This document shows positions 2,842 to 60,944 of a stretch of DNA of 64,000 nt, piece by piece (position 1 is the stretch's first letter; the number at the start of each line of letters is the position of its first letter). This DNA is from Diatrype stigma (Eukaryota; Ascomycota; Sordariomycetes; Xylariales; Diatrypaceae). A program made the translations under genes and the position numbers. The stretch lies in contig JAKJXP020000028.1 of NCBI GenBank assembly GCA_022225965.2, positions 248,001 through 312,000 on the forward strand, written 5' to 3'. Under the pieces are notes generated by a model. That model searched no databases and was not told the origin of the DNA. It saw only the letters and a list, made by a program, of their open reading frames with translations.

Positions 2842-5800
2842 CTATGCGAAGTTGTCGCTTCTATCAACACCAATGTCCTCCAGCTCGGCAAAGTTCTGGA
2901 AGTGCAGCGGGCGGTGCTGATCACTGTAGAATGGTGTGGGTGTGTCTAGCTTGACGTGCACAGGCTTCTTCTCTAATCCAGCGAAGCTGCTGCCCATGAA
3001 ACTGTAGTTCCACTTGCCGTTGTCTGGCACGAGGAAGAAGCCCTTGTACCGAGGACTGAGTAGAAGCTTCCGCTTGATGCCCATGGTCGTCGTAAAGCCC
3101 TGGGGCTGGTCGCTGCCAATGTCCTTATTCTCGGCACCCCACTTATAGCCGTTTGGAGTCAGAGCCCAGGCAGACAACGAGACGGACCCGGGCGTGAAAG
3201 AAACGTCAACAGTAACCGTGTCGTAGTCTTTCAACTTTGGATGGGAGTCGAGCAAGCGAGCATGCTCTGTCACATCTGCTGCGGACATATATGGCAGCTC
3301 GTTTCCAGCCATGGTATGGATCACACCCAAAGGCTCCATGTCTCCAAGATACTCGTGTTGAGGCAACTGTTGGGGCAACTGGACATTGCGTAGCCCGCCG
3401 ATCTGAGGTACCATGACAATGCAACGGATTTCCTTGACTTGCTTGTTGTCAGGCGCGGAGACTCCGTACAGGTACCCTGCAACTTGGACACGGAGGTCGG
3501 CAATGGTGATGAACTTCTTGAGGACATTGTTTGGCATAACATAGGTAATGTCGTCGATATCGTTGTCGACTGACGAGACATATATGTTGTTGGACCGAGT
3601 CCGCAGGTTCGACGTTGCAATGGCCCGCGTCCTCCACTCGGTCTTTGATGCGAATGTCTGTTGCTCGAATTGCGACGTAGTTGTCACAATGATCTCTTCG
3701 CCGTGGACATTTTGAGTCTTGGTTGTGACAGCTGTGAGCTGCTGTTGCTCTTGCTGTTGCTTCTCTATCTCTGCGGCTTGTTGTCTTTGCATCGACGGTG
3801 CAGAAATCTCCATACCCAAGATAATATCTCGGACTTCGCTGCTCGTCAGACTGGCGACATTGACATTGTTCTTTTTTCCGTAATCATGGAGGATGAGATC
3901 GCGCAGTTGCGTTTCAACCTTGATCCAGTCCTCGTCCGATAGGGTTGGCCAAATATGATGTTGCTGTGTGATGACCGTCTTGTCGGGGCGGAGGATGAGC
4001 TTAGTTTTATCCGGGTTGACATGAAGAGCACGGAGAATGAGGACCAGACGAGAGAACGCAGTGTATGAAGAGATACTCTTAAGCCACTCATCATACAAGT
4101 TGAAGAGCACCATCTGAGGCTCAGTGGCACGCAGGATCATGTCTCCTAGTTTTTCAACCTTCATGGCGGCCTGGAAAGGGAGCTGCAGTTCTGAGGCGCG
4201 GATAGAGATATTCGGGAAATCCAGCAAGTGAACCTCGAGAGGATCTAGCAATCCCTTGCGAGTGACGATGAGTTCCTTCGGCTGCTCCTCAATAGGGAGT
4301 GACCTAATCAGAGCTGCAACTTCCTCAGCCGTCTTCCATTTGGCCAGCTGACCAAGACGTTTCTGGCCGGCCCAAACACTGGTGTGGATGATCTTCAAGA
4401 AAAGTTGTCCAGTCCGAGGGTTGAAGATGAAGATAGCGCCATTGATCGGTTTCGTAGTCAGATTACCCTCAAACGTCTTGTGAATGGTGACACGGTACAC
4501 GTTGGTGTCATCAATGAAGAGCTTCGTCTGGTTGCTGAATAGCTCTGAGTAGTTCTGCGAATTGAGGAATTCTTGGTTGCTCTCAGAAGCATATAGCTGA
4601 AGACCCTTACGGATACGTTCTCGGAGCACGTAAAGCGCAGGGTTGGCCTTCATGATCTTTGCCATGGCCTGCTGGACCAGGACTTTCAAGCCAGGGAAAT
4701 ATTGTCCATACGCGGAATAAAGGTTGTAGGCAAGATCAATGCCAATCATGAGACCAGTTGCCGATGGATAGATGCTCATGCTATCATTGGTGTAATCGAG
4801 ATACTTAGCCCTGGTGTATCGCTCGATGTCGTGCGAATCATAGTCACCATATCGGAGTTGGACATCCAACCAGAACTTGTTCGTAGTGGTCGGTTCGATT
4901 ACATCCTTGGTGTCGAACAGAAGTGAAGGGCGAGTTACATTCCACTTGTTGCTAGCGAACAGCAGAATATCCGCACAAGAGCTGTTCATCTTGTATGACT
5001 TTCGAGGATGGATGGTTTCCTTTTGCACTGTTTCAATACCGAGTGATTCGAGTTCTTGATCGAAAACCTGGCAAAGGTCCATGACTGTAATGTATTGGGT
5101 CAGTGGTTGCTCCTTTCAGACTGAGATGTGTTCAGCTTACCTATACTCTCATGGATCTTCTGCCACAAATGGGCTCGGAAGATTTGAATTAAAGAGATCT
5201 TCAGCGTGGGAATCTTGCCGTGCAAGAAGATACCCGTCAGATCAAGCTGCACCTGGAAACCAACGTAGACGTTGGCTCTGTTAATGGTTGGTGACCACCA
5301 CAAGGTGAACCGACGGTTGGGGATTTGGTTTAGACCGGATCTTTGGGCATTCGTCAGCTTCTTGAACTTCATGGATTCCTCGAAACCACTGTTGTGAAGC
5401 ACAAGATAGTCATGCCGCAGATAGAGCTGGTCTTTATCAACCCGGAAACCTGCCCACTCAGTAGCTTCCGATTCCAGGGCGATATCCTGGATCTCAAACC
5501 TGTGGACTTCAGGAATATTTTGTTCAACCGCCTGCTTTTGTGACCTGAAAAGTAGATATTGACTTCTCTCTCCAGAGTCAAGAGCTGCAAAATCGGCGGC
5601 TGTTATCTCAATAGTATCGTAGTGTTCAGTTGAGACATCCCGAGCTTCTATTGCCGTGTGCTCGACACCACTCTTCTCCCTATGAAGGACTAGGATGTGG
5701 TTAGGTGTGACAACAAGATCTTCCTTGTCGCCCCCCATCTTGATGCGATAGAGATAGTCTTTCCCGCTGACTATGTTGAAAGCGCGCCGAGGCCCTCCGT

Positions 5801-8800
5801 CGGGACCCAGGAGTAGATCACCCTCCACAACATCCTCGACAGCTACCTGAGTGTGATCGTATCGCAGCAGCATTGTTCCCTTAGCAAGACATGCTTTCTC
5901 CCAGAAAAGTCCTTCCCAAGAGGGGAATCCCGTTGCCTTGAATAGCGTGTGTTCGAGGATCGTCTCCACACCACCAAGGGCTTGGATGACGTCGGTACGG
6001 TAGGCGTTGAGGTTCCATAGTTTACCGTCGTGGCGTTGACTTGTCCACCAGAAGGGGTTGCTCTTCATGAGCTGGTAGATCTTGAACTCACTTCGTGTCC
6101 GGAAGCCCTTGTCGAAGCTAAGCGTACTCCTATCCTTCTGGAAAAGTGTGTTAATACGAGGCAAACCACGGTCCCAGCTGTCTTCCAGGTCTTCCAGAGT
6201 AAGTCGTCGGTTCTGCTGGTTAGCTTCTAAGCGCTTCTGTGAGTACTCTGTCCAGACTCTTTGCGAATCGATGAACTCAGATTCCCAAGGAACGATGTAT
6301 CTGAAGATGTTCGGAATGAGCGTTTCTTCGTCATGAGTCATACCAGCCCGGTAGTGCGTCACTCCCGTATCCGTCTGTTTCGACCACCTCTTGTCACTCG
6401 CAGGAATCAGAATATGTGAACCAGAGATCATACCCAGGCCACCAAGTTCTTTCGGGGTATAGAACACCGCCGGAGGAAAACGAGACGGCATCTTTGAGTT
6501 CAGCCCTATCTTCACTCGGGTCTGAATCTTGGTTTCGCATTTCACGATGGTATCTAGCAAGTTGACAGTAGACACTGCCGCCTCGCGGTAATAAGTGAAG
6601 AGAGCAATGAGGGCCGTGTTCCACTTGTTGGCGATCTTGGTGAAAGTGGTCGATCCAGAAGACATGAGAATTTGGCGGATCCTGTTGTTGAACTTTTGAA
6701 TATCTTCCTCGGTAACCTGTAGGAAGGCATGCGCTGTTCTTTCCTTGGTCGTGTTGTCCACCAGTGACCAAACACTATCCTTGATCGGGAACTCATCATT
6801 CTGATTCCTAATTTTCGGAAGGACACGGACCTCGAAACCACACATCGAGTATAGCAGGTTCGGGTTGTCGCGACTGTAGACGCTTGCGAATGTATCATCC
6901 CATTCAATTGTGGTGACAGATCGAGGTAGTCGATTCTTCAAGTCCCAAAACACAGCCCGTCCCAGGTTCACATCGTGCCTCATAAGCCGCATCCGGGAGT
7001 CTCTTGGCCAGCATTTCTTGCTCTTGTAACCGATGACATTCTCAAAGTTAGGGTCAGGCTGCTCGGTCAAGAATCGCTGGATGAGATCACGAGATTCTTC
7101 AGCAGTGAACCGTAGGAAGACCCATATTCTGTCAATGTATCTTGTGTATAGACGAATAGGGTGCTTGGTCTCAGTCTCACGATCGCGGAACTGAAGGAAG
7201 TCATTCGGGCTTTGAGGCGGACCGGCAATCTCACTAGCTCGGTTCAATCCAAGAAGTAGAAGGTCCAACACAAGGCCGTAGTATTGGAAGACAAAGCCTG
7301 AAAACTGGAGTCCACGGATCATACCATAGCTGTTGACATGGTTCATGTCCTTGTAGGTGAGCTGTACATTGTTCTTGGCACTGATATAATCGGCCAAGTT
7401 GTGATCCATAATCAACCTAAGCAGCCGGTTCAACAGAGTAAGATCAATCTTTTCGTACACCTTAGAAAGCTCAGTCTCGATCATGACGTTGCACTCGCCG
7501 TCAGCGGTTTCCCAAACCCTATCGAGGTTGTTGATACCTTGCGCCCATTTGTACACGAGCAAAGGCGGCACCTCAGAGTCGGAAGGCTTGATCCAGTTCG
7601 GGAAAAGATGTCGTTGATCTGCTTGATACCACAGGTACTGGTCTAGGTAGGCATCACTGATTTTCTCGATGGGCTCAATATCGTAGACGGGATTTATGGT
7701 GCTGTAGTTATCGTTCATGTCAATCTGCACCTCTTTGAAGGCACGCTGCGTAAGCAGGAACCGCTTGATCCGTTCGAGTGTGGTTCCAGGACTATCATAA
7801 GCCTGTTCGATCAGAGCTAACTCTTCTCTTTGGCTCTGATTCAAGCGACCTTTGACCGAGTATGCCTCTCGAAGCCGCTCAAGGGCAAGAATTAGGATCT
7901 TGGTGTCATGTTTGTACGAAACACTGGGGAAAGGGATCGGGGTGAACTTCCGGCTTTCTAGCCAGTGAACTGTCGTCGTATAGATCGCCACGGCCTCTTC
8001 GGACGATACGTATGGCCCATCCTTCATGTAGTTATGTTGTCTTTCTTGCTCCGCTTTGAGCCAAAGACGGGTCAGTCTGCCTACGTTCTTCTTGGCAACT
8101 GTCTTGTCCACAGTCGCCCCTCTTCGGATTCGCTCTCGATTGTAGTGAGCAACTGAGATCCACCAGTCTGCCTTGGACTTCACGTATCGCAAGATGATAT
8201 TCTCAATGGGCGCAGGCAGGCCCGGAACTTTCCACGGAATGTTACTCTTCCAACACCTCCAGGCTTCAGACAGATGCTGAAGCACCGTGTTCACCTTATT
8301 CTGTTTGATCCCCTCAGGCATCATATCCATGAGATCTGACATGACAGAAGCTCGCAACTCGAGGTCGAAATGGGACTCGACACGTTGTTTTGTGACGGTC
8401 TTCGCTACTCCCTTGCTATGCCGACCCTCGAATTGACGCGAGAGCAAGTTTCCAAGCCATCGCTCGAGAAGTGGGATGATTCCTCTCATGAAGAAGAGCC
8501 ATACTCGCCAAGCCGGGGCCCAGAAACCACAGCCGGGACCCTTACCAACAGGCCCACTATTGAACCGGTAGTAGATGAGATGTTTCAAATCTTTGCACGA
8601 CCGAATCTGGTGCATAAGCTTATATTTGTAACGGTACATACCAGTGAGCTGACCAACGTGGTTGAAAGCATAGAGAATGCCATCTGCCAGTTGAAACGCA
8701 TCGATATTACCTAGCCGGTATTGTACTTGGGCGTCAACAATGAGCTTGGTAAGACGCAAGATTTCTCGCATCAGATGGAAGGCGTTTCCGAAGCGTGATT

Positions 8801-10520
8801 TTTTCCGTTCTTTCGTTGTTAGGGTCTTGACTGGTTTCAAGTTGAAGTTGTAATCGAGATGAAGGTAGGTCAAGTTCTTTCTGTGAATGAGGAGGTTCAA
8901 CATATTGAATCCCTGTCGGCAAACTTGAAGACCAGCTTCCACCCAGTCAATGGTTGTCTGTTGGAAGAACTTCGTTTGCTTGAGGGTCCTCAAGAGGTTT
9001 TGCCTGTTGATCGCCTTCGGTGGCTTCTTGTGAAGTTCGTTCAAGACATACGTCTTGAGTAGCTTTTGATACGATACTCGGACTTTGACGGGCTGCTTCG
9101 GGGGACAATGTTCAAGATACCACTGCTTAACTAGAGGAACATCTTGTGCTCGAGCCATTCGACCAGATCGACGGTCGAAGGGGAACGGAGCCCACCACAG
9201 CGCAATGGCGGAAGACGTGTCTTCATTGTACAGCTCTTCATCGGCCAAAAATGGCTCAACATCCGCTGGTAATTCAAAGGCATCGTCCTCCAACTCTTCA
9301 ATATTACCTGGGCCAAATATCTCATCCTCATGGGAAACCGACAGGTTTTTGGGAGCTACTGACCTCGACGAAATCGGGTTGATGGTGGGATCAAAGTGGA
9401 ACGCAGGCATATTCGGGTCGTCAGACTTGGTATAGACGATTTGGGGATGCGAGTACCAGTTCAACTGCACACTCCGAGGAAGTGAGTTGTAGAGGTACGG
9501 GTAAGCAACGCGCGACTCAGTGCGGATAGGAGCACGGAAGATGATTCTGTCGATGGCGTTGAATTCCCCGAAGTCTTCGTCGTTAGGATCAATGTCCTTG
9601 TAAAGGGGTTCGAAGCGAGGTCCTCCAGGCAAGGCAACATTGAGCGCCTTTGCAGTCAAAAGACTCTTCAAATCAAACAGATGGAAATAATTCGGGTCGA
9701 CTACCTCGCTCAATAAAGGTCGGCTCAGTCGATGAAGTGTTGCCATTTGCTGCAGCGTGAGATTCCACGACTTATAGCTCGGCCCGTTGACATGTTCGGT
9801 GTCGGACAGCGGTCGATGTTCATAGAACCATTCGTAGACAGCTGCATCTTCCTCCTCGTCAAGTTCCATCTGAATAGGCTCGAGTGGCTCGACATCTTCG
9901 ATGTTCTCAGACCAGGACAGAGGCGGCTCTTCATCGTCGAATGGTGGGAATCGCATCCTCTTGAACAACCTTCGATCGCTCTTCTCCTTGCGCATTGTCA
10001 ACCACATCGTCGCCCACTGAGCATGGAAGACCGGCGGGATCACTCGTGGGATCTCGTTGACGAGCGTCAGACAACCGTTGACGTGATAGAGAACTTTGAC
10101 CTCTCTCGCAGACTCCCAGGGCATCGGCATGTTCTCAAGAAGCTTCATTACAGCATGCGGCATGAACTTCAGAGCACCCAGGTAGCTCCGCTTGTCGCTT
10201 GTATACTTTTTCTGGGAGACATCGCCAATATCCTTCACGATCTTGCGCAGATGCTCCGGCGGCATGTCTGCCTTCTGCGTCTCAACAAAACCAGCCTTTC
10301 GCTTTTCGCCGAAGCGATTGCGCTGATTCCGAAGCCATTCTTTCTTCTTCTGCGCAAACTTTGCAATTTGAGGATCAGTCGGAGGACGGTATCCCGGGGG
10401 CGGGGGAGCTGGAGCTCCAGGAGGTGGTGGTAGATAATCGGAGGGAGGGCCGGGAGGGGGAGGTGGCGGCGGCGGAGGTCCCCATCCCGGAGGGGGAGGA
10501 GGGGGTGGGAAGGACGACAT
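2842..10520 (-). CDS. prp8: Pre-mRNA-processing-splicing factor Prp8 with embedded intein
   Basis: Prp8 is the U5 snRNP scaffold at the catalytic heart of the spliceosome. Two exons: 10520-5141 and 5084-2842. The intron (5085-5140) has GTAAGC, a CACTGAC branch site and CAG, and splices to give [12 protein letters not shown], the conserved sequence at that point. The 2540-aa product (2373 aa without the intein) matches the usual Prp8 size of about 2350. Seen in order: a Pro-rich N-terminus starting [10 protein letters not shown], the N-terminal and central Prp8 blocks, the RNase H-like region, and a C-terminal JAB/MPN-like domain near [13 protein letters not shown] chose the ATG at 10520 because the only upstream in-frame candidate, at 10532, is TTG. 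It is divergent from the eL34 gene across about 750 bp. Confidence 0.97.
5391..5891 (-). other. Prp8 mini-intein (167 aa, no homing endonuclease)
   Basis: In-frame protein intron at precursor residues 1544-1710, splitting the invariant Prp8 stretch FWEKA / SGFEESMKF. It has Cys at position 1 (CLAKGT), a block B TPNH motif near residue 62, and a C-terminal DYLVLHN with penultimate His and final Asn, followed by extein Ser. All residues needed for self-splicing are visible. At 167 aa it is a splicing-only intein like other fungal PRP8 mini-inteins. No LAGLIDADG motif is present. Host function requires its removal, so it is expected to be active. Confidence 0.95.
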
Positions 10521-11266
10521 CTTCAAGACCAACGAATACTAAATCCGATGACGATGCCGGATTGTTTCAAGATATCCCGAGGTCGCTTTCGCGCGCCGCG
10601 ATAAAACGCGGTTGAGATCGCGGAAGCCGAGCGCAATTAGACGCGTTGAATTAGTTACAGGTTCACCAAGGGAGTTATACAAGTGGACCTGATGAGAGGT
10701 CAATGATGGGACCTAAAGGCGATGACCGCATTGGATGATGTTTGTAGAGGTTGATGATGTCTCAAGATTCGCCTCGTCTTTCCATCACTGCCTTGAGATT
10801 TTCCCAAGGCAAAGGAAGGAAGGTCCCGCCCAGCCGCTACATGGATAGGCGCTAACGCCGATGTGGCTAGCATGCACGTGATTCAAGCAATGAAGTCAGC
10901 CATCTGGCCAAAGTGCGCGACAGTTGGCAAGTGTATGTGGGCTTGCAGGTGTCCCGGTGGCTGAGGGCATTGTGGCGGCAGTCTCACGTGACTATGTAGA
11001 CTGTGCCCAGGTGGTTCACTGCTCCCGTCATTTGAGGTTGTGGCGGGTTGATTACATAACAGCACCCAGCCTGATAAGCCGCTTCGATAATCTTTAAGGT
11101 GGGGCTTTGAATCACTTCAATCACTGATTGGTTAGCCAAGCGGGCACCTCTCACACACAAACCGCCTAACACTTCGCAATTTTTACTACAACAAAATATT
11201 CTTCCATCTCCAAGAAGAACAGAAGTTGTTAGACGTCAACCAGCGATTCCAGCAATCACCGTCAAA
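10521..11266. promoter_or_regulatory. Shared prp8 / eL34 divergent promoter region
   Basis: This 746-bp gap separates two divergent start codons and holds no coding frame of note. The eL34 ATG has a good fungal context (GTCAAAATGGCC). The last 100 bp before it are CT/CA-rich, as is common for ribosomal protein genes. No specific factor site was identified. Confidence 0.55.
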
Positions 11267-45982: not shown

Positions 45983-46573
45983 GGCAATTCCCCATTTGGC
46001 TTCGTTTCTCATTGCTTCTTCCCCTTTGGACGGCTCCAGCTTTCCCGAAGCTCCTGCTTCACCTCACGAAGCACTGGTTCGACAAACGTAGGCTTCCTGA
46101 TTTTCCCAGTGCGCGTCACTGATTCCACAGCAGCCTCAAAGCTGTCTGGTAGTGTGTAGTCTCCACGCCATTCCGCGGCGTGTTCGTGGTTGATTTAAAC
46201 CTTTTCAGATCTGATGGCCGACGGAAGTCGACATGATGCAAGTTGAATAAGACATCGGGTAGTCTTAAGCCTACGGTTAAACCATCAGCCGTCGTTGTTT
46301 TGGCAATGTCTGTGTTCGCCGGTTCTAGTTCTTGGGCCTCAGCAGCAGCCAGATTTGAGTTCAGTTTTGTACGGATTTTCCAAGCAGCATCCCAGGTGTG
46401 TATTTGGGATTGTTCTGATAGCTCATTATCCTGATGAGATACTTCTTCACTCTTGTCATCGGCCAGATCAGAGAAGCTAGGGGATATAGACTCGAACCTC
46501 TGTATTGTAAGAGCTACTATGCTAGGACTGTCGGAGACTGGCGAGTCGGTTGCCTGCCGAAGTATACTGGATG

Positions 46574-47169
46574 CAGGGTGTCACGCAACGCAACCTGTGC
46601 AACGCGATTGCCACCAATTGGTTGCCACCAGCATCTGCAACCCATCCATTCGGGATTTTTCTGAATTGCGCAACCTGCAACGCAACCCACGATACCTTCC
46701 CCTGGTTGCGCAACTGGTTGCACGTTGCAGTGGCTGGTGATTGTGGCTAGTATATACCGCCACAACAAGGATTATAGGGGCTACCAGGTACCTAGTAGGG
46801 GTCAAAGTGGAGGCTAAAGGGGAGGGGGAGGGGGGGGGGGGGTTGCCAGGAAGGGGGTGCCAGGTATGGGTTGGAACCTTCCATTAAGCAGCCTTCCATT
46901 AAGCAGCCTTCCATTAAGCAGCCTTCCATTAGGCAGGGCTGCTAATAATGTGCTTCGGATACGCCAGATAAACGCCCAAAATCCGTTTTACGACCTTTGT
47001 ATATGCCCTCACTTTAACCCGATTTGGGTACTGCAACCAATGCAACGCCACTGCAATTTGGTTGCAGTTGCGCAACGGCAATCCACCAAATCCAAGGGGC
47101 TGGTTGCAGTTACTGCAATCCATCCACCAGAGGTCCTGGTTGTAGTGGATTGCGTTGCGTGACACCCTG
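46574..47169. mobile_element. Complete non-autonomous hAT-type element (MITE), 596 bp
   Basis: Perfect 20-bp terminal inverted repeats (CAGGGTGTCACGCAACGCAA and its complement) flanked by a perfect 8-bp direct duplication ACTGGATG (46566-46573 and 47170-47177). An 8-bp duplication plus a CAGGG terminus is diagnostic of the hAT superfamily. The left half is rich in GCAAC/CAACC words and the right half in GGTTGC, as expected of transposase-binding subterminal repeats. No coding capacity: 596 bp, no transposase motif. The core has a 13-G run (46830-46842) and a 15-bp x 4 minisatellite. Confidence 0.95.
46877..46936. repeat. 15-bp x 4 minisatellite (CCTTCCATTAAGCAG) inside the MITE
   Basis: Four head-to-tail copies. 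The fourth differs by one base (AGGCAG for AAGCAG). Copy number could vary between MITE copies and date them. Confidence 0.95.
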
Positions 47170-47280
47170 ACTGGATGAACTGTGTGGAAGTCCAAAATCG
47201 GATTCTGATGTATTGGTCACTTCTTCTACTTGATCCCAAGGCTCTGGTGAATATTTCCTCTTATGATTATGTTGGTTCAT

Positions 47281-47688
47281 GGTTGCAATGGACATATGAT
47301 GAAATGAAAATGCCAAGCTGCCGATTTCCCATAGGCAGTACTTGCAGTTGAGCATCTGTCAGAGGGTACCTAGAATTGGACGAGAAGGCTGAATTGATCG
47401 CAGTTCAAGATCAAAATTTGTCTCGATCGTGGAAGGTGCCTTCTGCATATCCCCTACAAGGAAGTTATTACTTAGTCTGAAACCGTCAAGGGAAACTACG
47501 CCAAGCGTGTGCGACTATGGGGAACCTTCCCTCTGGCTTTTTACATGTGGTATAGTCATAATCCAGGTTATGTTTCAACCTAATCCTGTATTCTATTATC
47601 ACGTATCATATATCATTATATACATTATATGTCAACTGCCTTCGATAAGGACGAAGGGGTGAACAGTTTTGTAACCACCAGGTCAAGC
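47281..47688. other. Spacer between disrupted gene and DUF3237 gene
   Basis: About 400 bp of AT-rich DNA. It carries the probable promoter of the disrupted gene and the 3' flank of the DUF3237 gene. An in-frame upstream ATG at 47355 could extend the disrupted gene. Confidence 0.45.
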
Positions 47689-48460
47689 TCAGTCCATACC
47701 GGTCCCTGAAAATACTTGGGAGATTCGAGCATCCACCCCAGTCTGTACACCATCTTCGTAAGTAAAGCGCACGCTCCCTATAAACATCATACTCTCAAGG
47801 GCTTTGTACTCGGGGTGTCCCGTCTGGAATTTAAAGGTGTCGACTATACAGGGCCTGTCAGCTTCATACTCAAATACGACAAAAAGGTGCGAAGAAAAAA
47901 GCAAAGGTAAACAGGAGATTAGTGGAAAACCCACGTCCGTATCCAAAAGGGAGCGTCTTCGCGCCGGGCTGATTATAGACGATCGAGAGCAACTCGTCAC
48001 TCAGCTTGGCGACGCCTTCAACCGTGAGGCGAGCTGACAGCCCCTTGTCGTCGATGAGAATAGCCTGGGCATGCATACGACCGTGGGTATTGTCAGCGTC
48101 AATGGTGAAGTAGTCAACCGCGTTGTTGATGGTGAACCTGAACTTGGGCTCGAAGTCGCCGATAGACTCTATAATACCACCGGTGGGAAGCATTGCCTAA
48201 TCGGTCCGGTCAGCATTGCTGCGTCCCAATGACTATAGGGTACATCAAAACAGGACACAGCCTACCACAGCTACAAGGTTAGAACCACCATGGATACTGC
48301 CACAGTCGTATTTGTCTTTGAAACAGGCCTGATATGTGTCAATACGGAAGGCTCAAATTTTGGTCTGGCATATCATGGGCCGACACACCTTGAACCGCAT
48401 GGCAGGCCTCATAGTCGGAAAGCTTTGTGGTGCTTCGATATTTGTGGTAGATTCGGCCAT
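47689..48460 (-). CDS. DUF3237 family protein
   Basis: Four exons on the minus strand (48460-48389, 48328-48266, 48196-47935, 47843-47689) give 183 aa with frame kept at every junction. It starts MAESTTNIEAPQSFPTMRPAM. The product has the DUF3237 pattern: an HGGSNLVAV strand, TGGIIESI, a central FTIDADNTHGRMHAQAILIDDKG strand pair, LPFGYG and the closing FQTGHPEYKALESMMFIGSVRF. The family is a small beta-barrel of unknown biochemical role found in bacteria and fungi. Introns are 60-91 bp; the GTGGGT donor of intron 3 is the weakest. It is the only apparently intact gene in the 43-50 kb island, next to disrupted frames. There is no signal peptide, so it is probably cytosolic. Confidence 0.82.
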
Positions 48461-52904: not shown

Positions 52905-53807
52905 CTACGAGTCCTCATCATCGTTGCTAACCGTGCTAGTGCCGCCCCCTTCCGCCTCGGCTATCATCTTGGTCTTGACCACCTCTCCCGCCGGGTTGAC
53001 GTAGACATACGCTACGATGTCCAGCCCCGCGAACGGGGCGTATTCGTAGCCCAGCTCGAACTGCGTCTCCTCGTCCTCGGTGGTCACCGTCCGGTTGTGC
53101 CCGGTGAATTTCATGTCGCGGCTGTACGTCCCCACCAGCTTGCGGCTGAGCTCGTCGCCGCGGTTGTCCAGGAACTCGTCGTAGATCGACCCGTCCTGCG
53201 CCAAGACGCGGTTGGTGTGCGTCTGGCCCGAGTAATCGTTGACGCTGTAGAGGACGTTGTGGAGGATGTTGTAGTCCGGCGGCACGTCGCGCTTCTTGGA
53301 GCTCGCACTGCTCTCTGCCCCCGACGAGGCCGTGTCGGTGAGGTTCCCGACGATGCTGCCCACGCTGTTGCCCAGCGTGGCGACGATGGGGTTCAGGTCG
53401 ATGGTGTTGAGCACGTCGCCGACCATCTGCACCACGTTGCCCAGGCGCGCCTCCAGCAGGACCTTGGCGCTCACGTTCTCGATCTTGAGCGAGACCCGGT
53501 CGATGGAGGCGGCCACGCCCGCCGTGAAGTGCAGCAGGTTCAGCACCTTGGCGTCCAGGTTCACCTTGGCCGTGATGTTCTCCACCTCGATGCTGATCTC
53601 GCCCACCGACACCGACGCGTTCAGGTAGACGTCCGGCTCCTCGGGGAGCGCCACGCCGTTCGTGTTGGCCGTCTCGTAGTTCACGGCCTCGGGATCCCCG
53701 CGCTTCCTGAGATCGTAGCCGATGTACCCGTCGTCCTGAGCTAGCGAGGCCGACAGATGATGCGACAAGAGGAGCCAGGTGAAGCCATGGGGCGGAAAGA
53801 GCTTCAT
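52905..53807 (-). CDS. Secreted protein, paralogue A of a divergent pair
   Basis: Intronless, 300 aa, GC-rich. Signal peptide to about residue 23 (FTWLLLSHHLSASLAQ). Residues about 58-145 are a patterned hydrophobic block: VGEISIEVENITAKVNLDAKV, then AGVAASIDRVSLKIENVSAKV, then LEARLGNVVQMV and LNTIDLNPIV. N-glycosylation sequons (NAS, NIT, NVS) punctuate it. A Ser-rich linker leads to a C-terminal beta-like part (about 220-283: VGTYSRDMKFTGHNRT, YEYAPFAGLDIVAYVYVNPAG) and an acidic tail. The paralogue across the divergent promoter matches in the same order. Probably extracellular or cell-wall located. No known domain was recognised and the function is unknown. Confidence 0.85.
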   Translation of the reverse strand: MKLFPPHGFTWLLLSHHLSASLAQDDGYIGYDLRKRGDPEAVNYETANTNGVALPEEPDVYLNASVSVGEISIEVENITAKVNLDAKVLNLLHFTAGVAASIDRVSLKIENVSAKVLLEARLGNVVQMVGDVLNTIDLNPIVATLGNSVGSIVGNLTDTASSGAESSASSKKRDVPPDYNILHNVLYSVNDYSGQTHTNRVLAQDGSIYDEFLDNRGDELSRKLVGTYSRDMKFTGHNRTVTTEDEETQFELGYEYAPFAGLDIVAYVYVNPAGEVVKTKMIAEAEGGGTSTVSNDDEDS

Positions 53808-54750
53808 TTTTTGAGTTGGTGTTCAGGCGCAGGCCCCCGAGTGCACGATGTCGAGCTCAGGTCACCGTTATGTGTATTGAAGGGATAAGGATCGCTTCAA
53901 GCGACCTGGAGATGCAGGATTGGTTCGCGACGAGACAATGGGGATCATACTCCTCGGACCTCGAGCAAGCAACCAAGTGACTTGAGGGTTACTGACCTGG
54001 TGGGGGTCTAGATCTGTCTCATCAATCTGACATCAATCTGGCGGGGGATCCGCACCCCAGGTGAATCGGCATCGACGCGACTCGATCTGGGTTTCGAGGG
54101 AATACTAAGAGTCAACTATAGCAGTAACGTTTTGGGCTAAACAATTAGCCCGCGATGAATGGACGGTCCAGACGGTATCCCTCGACCGGCCCCACCTGGC
54201 TGTTGCACGTTGGCGGCCCCGAGGACTCCCGACTGGCTGAAAAGACGGAAGAAGGGGGTGAATCGGGCTTAGGAAGCTGGGCTCATTGGCCTGTCATTGC
54301 CCCGCATTGACCGCAATCTCTTTTGCTTAGAATTTTCAAGTTTCACTCCTTGCACGCGCAGCTTAACAGCTGTGATAAGTATGAGATCACGATGCATCAC
54401 GATGCCCGACCTTAGTATCGTGAATCCTTTTTTAGCTCGTTTGGGCGTCCTCGCTGGACACCGATCCGATGGCTCAATAAGGTACATACCTACATAATAG
54501 TAGCTAAAGAGCAGTGCCGAGTCATGCCCGCCACAGCCAGGAGGGGGGTCGCCAGCATGCAACTAATATGCAACCAAGGAGGATCATGCTTTTCTAACAC
54601 CTCAACCATCGTTCGCTGAACACGGCTCTTTAGAATCCCATCATACCTAGGCAGCCAGTCGGTTCAAGCTCGTACGCAGCACGCACGCACGCACCCACGT
54701 CGCAATTGTGCAGAGTTGCGCCTTCGACTGCTTGTGCCAAATCATTCAAT
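53808..54750. promoter_or_regulatory. Divergent intergenic region of the secreted paralogue pair
   Basis: 943 bp between the two start codons, with no credible frame. A shared promoter is inferred from the head-to-head layout. An ACGCACGCACGCACCCACG tract lies near 54680-54698, upstream of paralogue B. No specific binding site was identified. Confidence 0.45.
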
Positions 54751-55722
54751 ATGCGCCATCATTCCTTCCTGTCATTAGCAGCATGCGGCTTGTCGCAGCT
54801 ATTGTTTGTCACAGCGCAGACGGCGTCGTCGATAACTGACGCTGCGCCGACGCCTACGCCGACAGATGGGTTGACGAGTTCTGTATCGCCGCCCGGGGTT
54901 ACAGTCACAGACACCACAGACACCTCGCAAACGAGCGCGACAACCTCAGCATCTAATAGCGACACTACATCCGCCGGTACCGGTACCACCACTTCGGGAG
55001 GAGGAGGGGGGTCAACGACGGCGACCAGCTCGTCGCCCCCGGACGTCTCGCTGCGCGTGCCGGAGCTGCACGTGGGCCGGATCGAGCTGGACGTGGACAA
55101 CCTGAACGCGGAGATCAACCTGGCGGCGCAGGTGGCGAACCTGGTGGAGCTCAACGCGGGGATCCAGGTGGGGATCGAGAAGGTGAACATCACGATCGCG
55201 GACGTGGACGCGGAGCTGGAGCTGGTGATCCGGCTGGGCAACCTGGCGGACATCGTCAACCGGACGCTGGCGTCGCTCAACCTGAACCCGCTGCTGATCA
55301 ACATCCTCAACGAGGCGACCGACCTGGTCGACGCCGTCGTGGGCGTCGTGGACGGCCTGCTGGGCGAGGTCGTGAGCGGCGGCTCGACCATCAGCTACCT
55401 GATCGACAACCTCGGCGCCATCGTGGCCCAGACCACCGACGCCGCCGGCAACCTCGTCAGCTCTGTCGTCGGCGACTTCCAGAACAACATGACCTACACC
55501 GGCGCCCAGGAGCTCCTCGACGGCGGCCTGGTCCAGAAGACGTACAAGTACGACCCCTTGAATGCCCTGGTCAACATCGTCTTCAACTCGGCGAACCAGG
55601 TCGTCCAGGCCGTGGTTGTGAAGGGAGGTGGCGGCGGGAGCAGTACCTCGGCCGTGCCGACAGCGACGTCGGCCACGGCCACGTCAAACACGGCTACGTC
55701 CAGTGCAACACCGACAGCTTAG
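54751..55722 (+). CDS. Secreted protein, paralogue B of a divergent pair
   Basis: Intronless, 323 aa from the ATG at 54751, which directly precedes a signal peptide (MRHHSFLSLAACGLSQLLFVTAQ). A 45-bp longer start at 54706 would bury the signal and is less likely. A Ser/Thr/Gly-rich, probably O-glycosylated stalk (about 23-95) leads to the pair's shared block (about 97-195): VGRIELDVDNLNAEINLAAQV, AGIQVGIEKVNITIADVDAEL, VIRLGNLADIV and LASLNLNPLL. The shared C-terminal part follows (VVGDFQNNMTYTG, YKYDPLNALVNIVFNSANQVV), then a Ser/Thr/Ala tail. There is no hydrophobic GPI tail. Relative to paralogue A it gains the stalk and tail, suggesting a cell-wall-spanning variant. Function unknown. Confidence 0.86.
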   Translation: MRHHSFLSLAACGLSQLLFVTAQTASSITDAAPTPTPTDGLTSSVSPPGVTVTDTTDTSQTSATTSASNSDTTSAGTGTTTSGGGGGSTTATSSSPPDVSLRVPELHVGRIELDVDNLNAEINLAAQVANLVELNAGIQVGIEKVNITIADVDAELELVIRLGNLADIVNRTLASLNLNPLLINILNEATDLVDAVVGVVDGLLGEVVSGGSTISYLIDNLGAIVAQTTDAAGNLVSSVVGDFQNNMTYTGAQELLDGGLVQKTYKYDPLNALVNIVFNSANQVVQAVVVKGGGGGSSTSAVPTATSATATSNTATSSATPTA

Positions 55723-58858: not shown

Positions 58859-59858
58859 TTGCAAGTATACTCCAGATATTGGTTCACGGCTTTGTCCAAG
58901 ATGCAGAAGAACATCATTATCATGAAGGGTTTTTATTATTCTTGCAGGCATATGCATAACCAAGTATTATGTATACTCCTAAAAAAATAAAAGCAAGTAA
59001 AAGATATAATAATATCCATGCATATATTCTTTCCTTAATATTGTTTCTTTAGAAACAAGTTAGCAAAAAGATTTGGCAAAAAAATGGGATAACAGAGTTA
59101 TCTAGTAGTAATCAATGATCAATGATCATGATGAAGGAATAGCACAGCTCAGAACAAGGTTCAACGCATGGGCGGACGGACACCGAAGTGCCTAGCCTAA
59201 CCCTCGTACCGTTCCAAGCTGTTAAAGCTGTACTATTCTCATAGTTCCTGTGGTGTTAGTAGAAGCCAACTGCCAGAATCGAACCCATACCGCCTCGAGA
59301 GGTGGTATGGTTGAGTTCTTGCTTTGACCGACTGAGCCAGAGGAGCTGTTGGTGAAAGATTTGCCCAATATTTAAACATATATACCTGCCTCTGTATGTT
59401 TGTCCTAGGTACCTAAGTAGGTAGCATGTGGAATGGCTGCCTGAGGTACGTACCTCTATGATTACTCGACTCCCTAATCAGTTGCTCCAGGTGATCACTT
59501 GATGGGATTTCATAACGCGCTCATTACTACACTGGCGAAAGACCCTAATACCTAAATTACGATGCCATTCCTACCCGCGTAGGACTTTTCAATCGATTCG
59601 AGGACCTGGTGGAATTTTTCAGTTTGTGCGCGCACACCTTCAAGACATAGGACCGAGCACCTGGGTGTAACCACCACAACAACCACAACCACAGCAACCA
59701 CAGCAATAATATTACCGCAATTCACAACACATCCTACACCACACTTGGTACCTCGCCCAACGGTATCTACTTCATCTGACAGTCTATACCTCACCCTACG
59801 CTTCAATCTGTACCCCATAGGCTGCGACGTATAACCCCGAAAACCAACGCAGCTCAAC
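58859..59858. other. Intergenic with a SINE-like insertion
   Basis: Contains the tRNA-related element listed separately. The right-hand 250 bp carry CCACAACAACC repeats near 59670-59710 and form the promoter of the next gene. Confidence 0.45.
59078..59345 (-). mobile_element. tRNA-related SINE-like element
   Basis: On the minus strand a tRNA-like head (59345-59262) has a perfect A box (TGGCTCAGTCGG) and a near-perfect B box (GGTTCGATTCT) about 44 nt apart. The acceptor and T stems do not pair (several mismatches), so it is not a working tRNA. About 180 bp of non-tRNA sequence follow, ending in a T7 run (complement of 59078-59084) that could stop RNA polymerase III. This is the layout of a tRNA-derived SINE. 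A lone tRNA pseudogene is the alternative. Ends are approximate. Confidence 0.45.
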
Positions 59859-60944
59859 ATGGCCCGACGCCGCCGCAAAGATGGTCGAAAGCCCCATTCA
59901 AAATCTTCTAAGCCATTTTCCAAGCTAATGCCATTTGGTTTCAATTTCGGAGAAGACGGTGCGCTTCTGAAGCACGTCAGAAAGACTCAAGTGCGGTTCG
60001 TAATCAAATGCCACACTCGCAGCATGGACCGAGGCAAAATCGACGAGTATCTCTCCGAAGTTGTCAAGGGTGGAGTGACCATGATTGACAATGTCGGAAA
60101 AATGCCCCAGAACACTTTCTGGCATAACGTCATTTACAACGTGAAATGGACCGGCACTCTCACTGGTAGCAACATCTTCGGACTTGTTGTCGCGCTAGTA
60201 CAGGCCCATGAAGCCTTTGAACGCAACCCCCCTATCAACTTCCATCCGAATGCTTACAGCTCGACTGCCAAGGAGATCCATAAATTCTCTAGACTCTTGA
60301 AAGAGAAGTATGCTGGCGATTCTGAGATCCTAGACCTCTACTTCTCCCCACGACAAGGTGAGGGCGATGAGGGCAGCGACACGGACCAGTCTATTGAATT
60401 TCCGAAGGAGGCAGTCACGAGAGAGGAAATCGAGACGGACGATGCTTGGAAGAACATGTACGAAGACATTGTCCCTGAAGAAACGTCTAGCGAGGACGAA
60501 GAGGAGGACGAAGAGGAGGAGGACGACGAAGAGTACCCCAATCCCTACAAACCTCAACCGAACCGTGGCCTTAAGTACGAGAAACGTGTATTCGCCAAGT
60601 ACGAGCGCGACGAAGGACTCGACGACGAGGACGAACGTCTTCTCCAGGAGCAGCAACAGATGTTCGCCGAATCCCGTGCTCGACGCGACGCGGGGGCCAC
60701 GGCGACCTCCGGTGACGAGATGGAGGTGGACAGTGCTGAAGGGGCCTCGAAGCCAGCCGAGGAGGCCGGAGCCCAGAACGGTGGCCAGACCGAGAGAGCA
60801 GCTGCCGGGAAGCGGGCTCGAGACGACGGCGGGGGGGACACGGAGGAGGCGCTTGGTGCTGCTCCGAAGCGCCGTCGCCTTCCCCAGGGAGATGAGGTCG
60901 GCGTGGAGGAGCTGACGGAGACCATGAGAGATACTGGCTTTTGA
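59859..60944 (+). CDS. Basic-then-acidic nuclear/nucleolar-type protein of unknown function
   Basis: Intronless, 361 aa. The N-terminus is strongly basic (MARRRRKDGRKPHSKSSKP), probably a nuclear or nucleolar signal. Residues about 25-170 look globular (PFGFNFGEDGALLKHVRKTQ, RFVIKCHTRSMDRGKIDEYL, NTFWHNVIYNVKWTGTL, VALVQAHEAFERNPPINFHP). An acidic tract (EETSSEDEEEDEEEEDDEE, about 208-226) follows, then a PNPYKPQPNRGLKYEKRVFAKYERDEG segment, a charged helix and a basic patch (GKRARD, PKRRRLP) near the end. Such acidic/basic alternation is common in ribosome-biogenesis and chromatin proteins, but I do not recognise the family and assign no function. Confidence 0.8.
   Translation: MARRRRKDGRKPHSKSSKPFSKLMPFGFNFGEDGALLKHVRKTQVRFVIKCHTRSMDRGKIDEYLSEVVKGGVTMIDNVGKMPQNTFWHNVIYNVKWTGTLTGSNIFGLVVALVQAHEAFERNPPINFHPNAYSSTAKEIHKFSRLLKEKYAGDSEILDLYFSPRQGEGDEGSDTDQSIEFPKEAVTREEIETDDAWKNMYEDIVPEETSSEDEEEDEEEEDDEEYPNPYKPQPNRGLKYEKRVFAKYERDEGLDDEDERLLQEQQQMFAESRARRDAGATATSGDEMEVDSAEGASKPAEEAGAQNGGQTERAAAGKRARDDGGGDTEEALGAAPKRRRLPQGDEVGVEELTETMRDTGF

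What the first reader, a model, noticed from the sequence alone, without database searches (positions are those of the whole stretch)
46009..47280. Complete hAT MITE caught inside a reading frame, with the original codon phase recoverable
The 596-bp element (46574-47169) has perfect 20-bp inverted termini and a perfect 8-bp duplication ACTGGATG. Dropping the element and one copy of the duplication makes the minus-strand frame run straight from LPHSSSS into ILRQATDSP without phase change. This shows that the element destroyed a coding sequence. The perfect ends suggest recent movement, so the locus may be intact in other strains.
Basis: seen in the sequence. Interest (0 to 1): 0.78.

Follow-up and report, generated by a model that had tools for sequence, protein, structure and literature searches.

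The report
Fungal hAT mini-transposon splitting an ORF
A short, non-coding jumping-gene fragment of the hAT kind sits inside an open reading frame of an unnamed filamentous fungus; it is real but ordinary, its full-length relatives in the same genome look mutated to death, and whether the frame was ever a working gene is not shown.

Summary
The element is real. The 596 bp (46574-47169) have perfect 20-bp inverted ends and a perfect 8-bp duplication, ACTGGATG. At least 33 places in the 49-Mb genome cover 532 or more of its 596 bases (capped list). Of the 32 other than the window's, 31 have paired ends, 22 a perfect duplication and 2 a one-mismatch duplication. It is a hAT derivative: its outer 162 and 159 bp match a 3,075-bp element with the same ends and a hAT dimerisation domain. 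The full-length relatives compared carry heavy transition (RIP-type) load and stops.

The destroyed-gene claim is only partly supported. Without the element and one duplication copy, a 212-codon minus-strand frame crosses the site (9 of 3000 shuffles reach it). But it stops at 46116, not 46009; codon bias is weak; and no homologue was found in a database that does hold relatives of this fungus. The window copy is among the least mutated of its family. Strain polymorphism is untested. New member of a known kind.

The parts
46574..47169 (.). 596-bp hAT-derived MITE, non-coding
   Evidence: ends and duplication; sister copies; full-length hAT relatives
46574..46593 (+). left terminal inverted repeat, CAGGGTGTCACGCAACGCAA
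   Evidence: (I2)
47150..47169 (-). right terminal inverted repeat, perfect complement of the left
   Evidence: (I2)
46566..46573 (.). 8-bp target site duplication, left copy ACTGGATG
47170..47177 (.). 8-bp target site duplication, right copy ACTGGATG
46574..46735 (.). outer 162 bp shared with the first 162 bp of the 3,075-bp hAT element on C46 (91% identical)
47011..47169 (.). outer 159 bp shared with the last 156 bp of the same hAT element (84% identical)
46736..47010. internal 275 bp without match to the C46 hAT element (the C11 match reaches 15 bp into it); 39 of the 48 own-genome rows it draws lie at MITE places
46877..46936 (+). 15-bp tandem units (CCTTCCATTAAGCAG type), 4 units inside the MITE
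47178..47358 (-). upstream part of the interrupted open frame; first ATG of the MNQHNHKRK stretch at 47280
46116..46573 (-). downstream part of the same frame at the empty site; only match in the own genome is itself; no ATG inside
46009..46194 (-). 61-codon frame in another phase with coding-like codon score; would need a further frame change or an unusual intron to belong to the same gene

Best explanation
This is a non-autonomous hAT transposon (MITE): the two ends of a 3,075-bp hAT element around a 275-bp filler. A hAT transposase supplied in trans bound the inverted ends and inserted the element at a staggered cut, giving the 8-bp duplication (mechanism inferred from the hAT family). It landed in a minus-strand open frame of an unnamed, single-copy stretch. 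It adds 604 bp and shifts the phase: as the sequence stands, 37 codons from the ATG at 47280 run up to the element, then 19 element codons, then a stop (shown). If the frame was a gene, the insertion cut it (inferred). The full-length relatives seen are now dead by RIP-type mutation, so the family is probably immobile in this strain unless an unseen or different hAT drives it (inferred).
For: Ends and duplication. Family: at least 33 near-complete places; of 32 fetched, 31 with paired ends, 22 perfect and 2 one-mismatch duplications. Parentage: outer 162 and 159 bp match the C46 element, 3,075 bp, same ends, perfect 8-bp duplication, PF05699 inside it at E 1.4e-7; PF05699 lies inside 5 of the 6 end-bounded elements. 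RIP: C46 and C11 differ by 415 transitions and 0 transversions over 3,075 bp. Frame: 212 codons, 9 of 3000 shuffles as long, longest of 8 family sites compared.
Against: The codon score of the downstream piece (0.015) lies between coding (mean 0.171) and non-coding (mean -0.197); the upstream piece (-0.066) is nearer non-coding. No Pfam match in 3 of 3 pieces, no PDB match, no homologue among 41 candidates, although the database holds 180 relatives of another window protein. A further frame change is needed to reach 46009. 7 of 32 sister copies lack the 8-bp duplication and 1 lacks paired ends. No transposition assay, no other strain.
Confidence: 0.6

Rival explanations
1. The element is a hAT MITE but the frame is fortuitous: it sits in non-coding DNA and destroyed nothing.
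For: Weak codon bias of both flanking pieces, no family match, no ATG in the downstream piece, a frame change after it; no homologue in a database that holds Xylariales proteins.
Against: 212 codons is rare in shuffles (9 of 3000), and the other two minus frames of the downstream piece hold 9 and 10 stops against 0. In the real window 440 of 1200 sampled positions lie in a frame this long. Fast-evolving or lineage-specific genes also lack homologues: a 363-aa window frame found only itself.
Confidence: 0.35
2. The gene is a pseudogene with two breaks: the frame change around 46195-46240 is a separate lesion, older or younger than the MITE.
For: The 61-codon frame ending at 46009 scores as coding (0.142; 95th percentile of non-coding 0.082) though out of phase with the 154-codon piece. 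None of 8 phase-compatible introns has a strong donor or branch motif.
Against: An unusual intron, an assembly error or two unrelated frames would look the same; the order of events cannot be read from one genome.
Confidence: 0.35
3. The MITE is spliced out as an intron, so the gene still works.
For: Transposons that make introns are known in some eukaryotes (recalled, no call).
Against: No in-frame GT-AG pair with a GTRNGY donor spans the element before the stop at 47110 (the donor rule is recalled, weaker donors were not tested there).
Confidence: 0.04

Closest known systems
hAT MITEs such as Mar of Drosophila (PMC3517528) and BniHAT-1/2 of Brassica nigra (PMC7385995); search listings with abstract starts only
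   Same: Short non-coding elements with inverted ends, assigned to hAT.
   Different: Other hosts. The RIP-type load of the full-length relatives seen here is not mentioned in the abstract starts seen.
MITE family with an 8-9-bp duplication in Mycosphaerella graminicola (PMC4522978; passages)
   Same: Fungal MITE with about an 8-bp duplication in a genome with RIP.
   Different: One of 13 MITE families there, not assigned to hAT in the passages seen. Ten of the 13 were under 200 bp in average match length and showed no RIP bias; copies here are 483-635 bp and show mild RIP-type change.
hAT elements with long and short forms in Pyrenophora tritici-repentis (PMC3538342; passages)
   Same: Fungal hAT with a shorter non-autonomous form.
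   Different: That short form is 2.3 kb and codes for a chimeric protein; this one is 596 bp and non-coding.

Membership tests
hAT superfamily (non-autonomous member) | 8-bp target site duplication | tested here: met
   Perfect at the window copy; of 32 other copies fetched 22 perfect, 2 with one mismatch, 7 with five or more mismatches (two of these share a shifted 6-bp string), 1 without paired ends
hAT superfamily (non-autonomous member) | terminal inverted repeats shared with an element that encodes a hAT transposase | tested here: met
   Six end-bounded elements of 3,065-3,079 bp, five with a PF05699 match inside; the matches carry stops
hAT superfamily (non-autonomous member) | T2/A7 preference in the duplication (recalled) | tested here: inconclusive
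   T at position 2 in 10 of 24 and A at position 7 in 11 of 24 perfect duplications; the window's ACTGGATG fits neither
MITE | short, without transposase, multi-copy with conserved ends | tested here: met
   483-635 bp in 32 copies; at least 33 near-complete places
MITE | mobilised in trans by a transposase | not testable with these tools
   No assay. Nine DNA relatives of the C46 interior: seven have a PF05699 match, all seven with stops, two have none listed
disrupted protein-coding gene | homologous protein spanning both sides of the insertion | tested here: inconclusive
   Downstream piece searched alone: 0 of 41 candidates. Controls: a 380-aa window protein found 180, a 363-aa one only itself. 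The upstream piece was not searched
disrupted protein-coding gene | same open phase on both sides of the empty site | tested here: met
   212 codons, minus strand; phase agreement alone has a 1-in-3 chance
disrupted protein-coding gene | coding-type codon usage | tested here: inconclusive

The most novel reading that the evidence does not exclude
The short MITE outlived its own master: full-length hAT copies were destroyed by RIP while the shorter, more divergent MITEs were only mildly mutated, and one of the least mutated copies now splits a gene as a presence/absence variant between strains, a natural knockout that could date when transposase activity ended.
Probability: 0.2. Interest if true: 0.4.

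Novelty: new member of a known kind. Interest (0 to 1): 0.22.

Why it matters
It gives a fungal hAT MITE family together with its full-length relatives in the same genome, a clear contrast in composition between them (GC 0.28-0.36 in 6 full-length copies; 0.42-0.55 in 32 MITE copies), and one candidate frame-splitting insertion that a simple PCR could test. As a biological event it is ordinary.

Tried and rejected
Pfam on the three frame pieces: nothing. Protein search with the 154-aa piece: none of 41 candidates. First control, a 363-aa window frame: only the window's own copy among 7043 candidates; I first took this to mean that the database lacks fungal relatives. PDB search with the 154-aa piece: nothing. 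A paralogue in the own genome: only itself. An intron joining the two downstream frames: 8 phase-compatible GT-AG pairs of 45-130 nt, none with a strong donor or branch motif. An intron removing the MITE: none in frame with a GTRNGY donor. Pfam on four open pieces of the C46 hAT: a sub-threshold PF05699 match (E 0.0062) and a weaker DUF4848 match on one piece, nothing on three. A first alignment of three hAT copies had the C21 copy reversed; its C21 identities and its polarised and context counts are void, one search replaces them. Literature: no held paper holds the 14- or 15-base end strings tried; repeat databases were not searched. Searches were seen as listings; passages were seen of PMC4522978, PMC3538342 and PMC6416283.

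Full report
What is there. The element at 46574-47169 is 596 bp long with 20-bp perfect inverted ends and ACTGGATG on both sides. The window is part of contig 28 of a 48.98-Mb, 224-contig genome without a name. It is a filamentous ascomycete by gene content (Prp8, a fungal-rhodopsin-domain protein). The best named matches of that rhodopsin-domain protein are from Monosporascus (55% identity) and Hypoxylon (53-55%), both Xylariales, so the genome is probably from that order (inferred from one protein).

The family. The element as query gives 45 matches (148 candidates, 40 scored, so a lower bound), of which 33 places cover at least 532 of 596 positions. The end motif with up to 2 mismatches occurs 93 times forward and 81 times reverse, against 0 and 0 for the reversed-letter control. 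All 32 such places other than the window's were fetched: 31 have paired ends within 3 mismatches, one (L052) does not; 22 have a perfect 8-bp duplication, 2 one mismatch, 7 five or more mismatches, two of these (L046, L063) with a shifted 6-bp match. The closest sisters are on C62 (95%) and C167 (92%), the next at 86% and below.

The parent. PF05699, the hAT dimerisation domain, matches at 15 places. A DNA search with the interior of the C46 element finds 9 places including itself. Six of these are bounded by the MITE's ends: C46, C11, C21 and C102 (3,075 bp each), C62 (3,065) and C86 (3,079). PF05699 lies inside five of the six, not C62. The duplication is perfect at C46 and C62, has one mismatch at C11 and C102 and two at C21; at C86 it is a run of G and says little. 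C48 and C8 show one end and C15 none within 5 mismatches in the stretches held. The MITE's first 162 bp match the first 162 bp of the C46 element at 91% and its last 159 bp the last 156 bp at 84%; the middle 275 bp have no match there, while the C11 match reaches 15 bp into it. Of 48 own-genome rows for the middle part, 39 lie at MITE places, 5 beside end motifs, and 4 (C71 twice, C41, C137) were not looked at.

State of the parent. C46, C11, C21 and C102 differ among themselves by 370-416 transitions and 0-5 transversions; C46 against C11 by 415 and 0. C62 and C86 are more distant (186-217 transversions in their pairs). Change of C to T is least frequent before G (0.47, against 0.60-0.75 before the other bases; six copies pooled), and GC is 0.28-0.36 in the six, against 0.51 for the window. 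This is the signature of repeat-induced point mutation, described in PMC4522978 (passage) as acting on repeats longer than 400 bp and at least 80% identical. Seven of the nine relatives have a PF05699 match and all seven carry stop codons inside it; the other two have none listed. Two PF05699 matches outside these nine (C147, C37) are without stops, so another hAT could in principle act in trans; this was not tested.

State of the MITE. MITE copies carry the same kind of change more mildly: GC 0.42-0.55 in 32 copies. Against C62, 20 of 26 substitutions have C or G in the window and T or A in the sister, 5 the reverse, 1 is a transversion; against C167, 30 of 34, 4 and 0. Against the majority letter the window copy has 8 C-to-T/G-to-A changes, third-fewest of 32 (median 17.5), and its GC is second-highest. 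Against this, its 17 transversions are above the median of 15 (range 5-25), since with C62 and C167 it forms a sub-group. It is one of the less mutated copies; no date follows.

The frame. Element plus one duplication is 604 bp. Across the empty site one minus-strand frame is open for 212 codons, the other five 0-73; 9 of 3000 Markov shuffles of the neighbourhood reach 212 in any frame. At seven sister sites the longest such frame is 55-165 codons. Of 1200 sampled window positions, 440 lie in a frame this long. As the sequence stands, 37 codons from the ATG at 47280 reach the element, then 19 codons, then a stop at 47110-47112.

Limits of the gene claim. The codon model, trained on 11 long frames of the window, separates the classes moderately; three of its 11 leave-one-out frames score below 0.02. 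The downstream piece scores 0.015 (non-coding 95th percentile 0.043, coding 5th percentile -0.068), the upstream piece -0.066, and the 61-codon frame ending at 46009 scores 0.142. That frame is out of phase with the piece before it; eight GT-AG pairs could join them, none with a strong donor or branch motif. If this is one gene it has two breaks, and the finding's start at 46009 assumes a continuity that is not in the sequence. There is no ATG in the downstream piece. No family, structure or homologue was found. The database does hold relatives: 180 proteins for a 380-aa window protein, though only the window's own copy for a 363-aa one. The missing homologue therefore counts mildly against a conserved gene; a fast-evolving or lineage-specific gene, or one outside 85-270 aa, would be missed.

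Comparison. Non-autonomous transposon pieces in fungal genes are common: PMC6416283 (abstract and passages) reports 50.6% of non-autonomous elements in genic regions over 625 fungal genomes. Long and short hAT forms are known from a fungus (PMC3538342, passages), and a fungal MITE family with an 8-9-bp duplication is reported (PMC4522978, passages). This is a new member of a known kind.

Noticed in passing
window 5670-5891 (-), inside 5103-10538: The Prp8 gene holds an intein-type stretch: Hom_end_hint PF05203, E 1.8e-7, 31.8 bits, just under the cut-off of 32.1.
   Followed up: no
window 47870-48196 (-): Neighbouring frame with a DUF3237 domain (PF11578, E 1e-6), on the same strand and upstream of the interrupted frame.
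   Followed up: no
window 52908-53822 (-) and 54634-55719 (+): Two divergently oriented frames whose translations look alike by eye and match no Pfam family.
   Followed up: no
window 59853-60941 (+): A 363-aa open frame without Pfam match whose only protein-database match is itself, although the database holds Xylariales proteins.
   Followed up: partly
window 46877-46936; L055, L056: A 15-bp tandem repeat inside the MITE has 4 units in the window and C62 copies, 3 in C167 and 0-1 in the other 29 copies by a pattern count, a marker of this sub-group.
   Followed up: partly
G000 contigs C7, C29, C59, C106, C205: MITE copies or end motifs lie within 300 bp of the first base of at least five contigs, suggesting assembly breaks at family copies.
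   Followed up: no
L065 (C11:375925-376982): A MITE copy with part of another copy in the opposite orientation directly beside it (matches 376125-376607 and 376605-376782).
   Followed up: no
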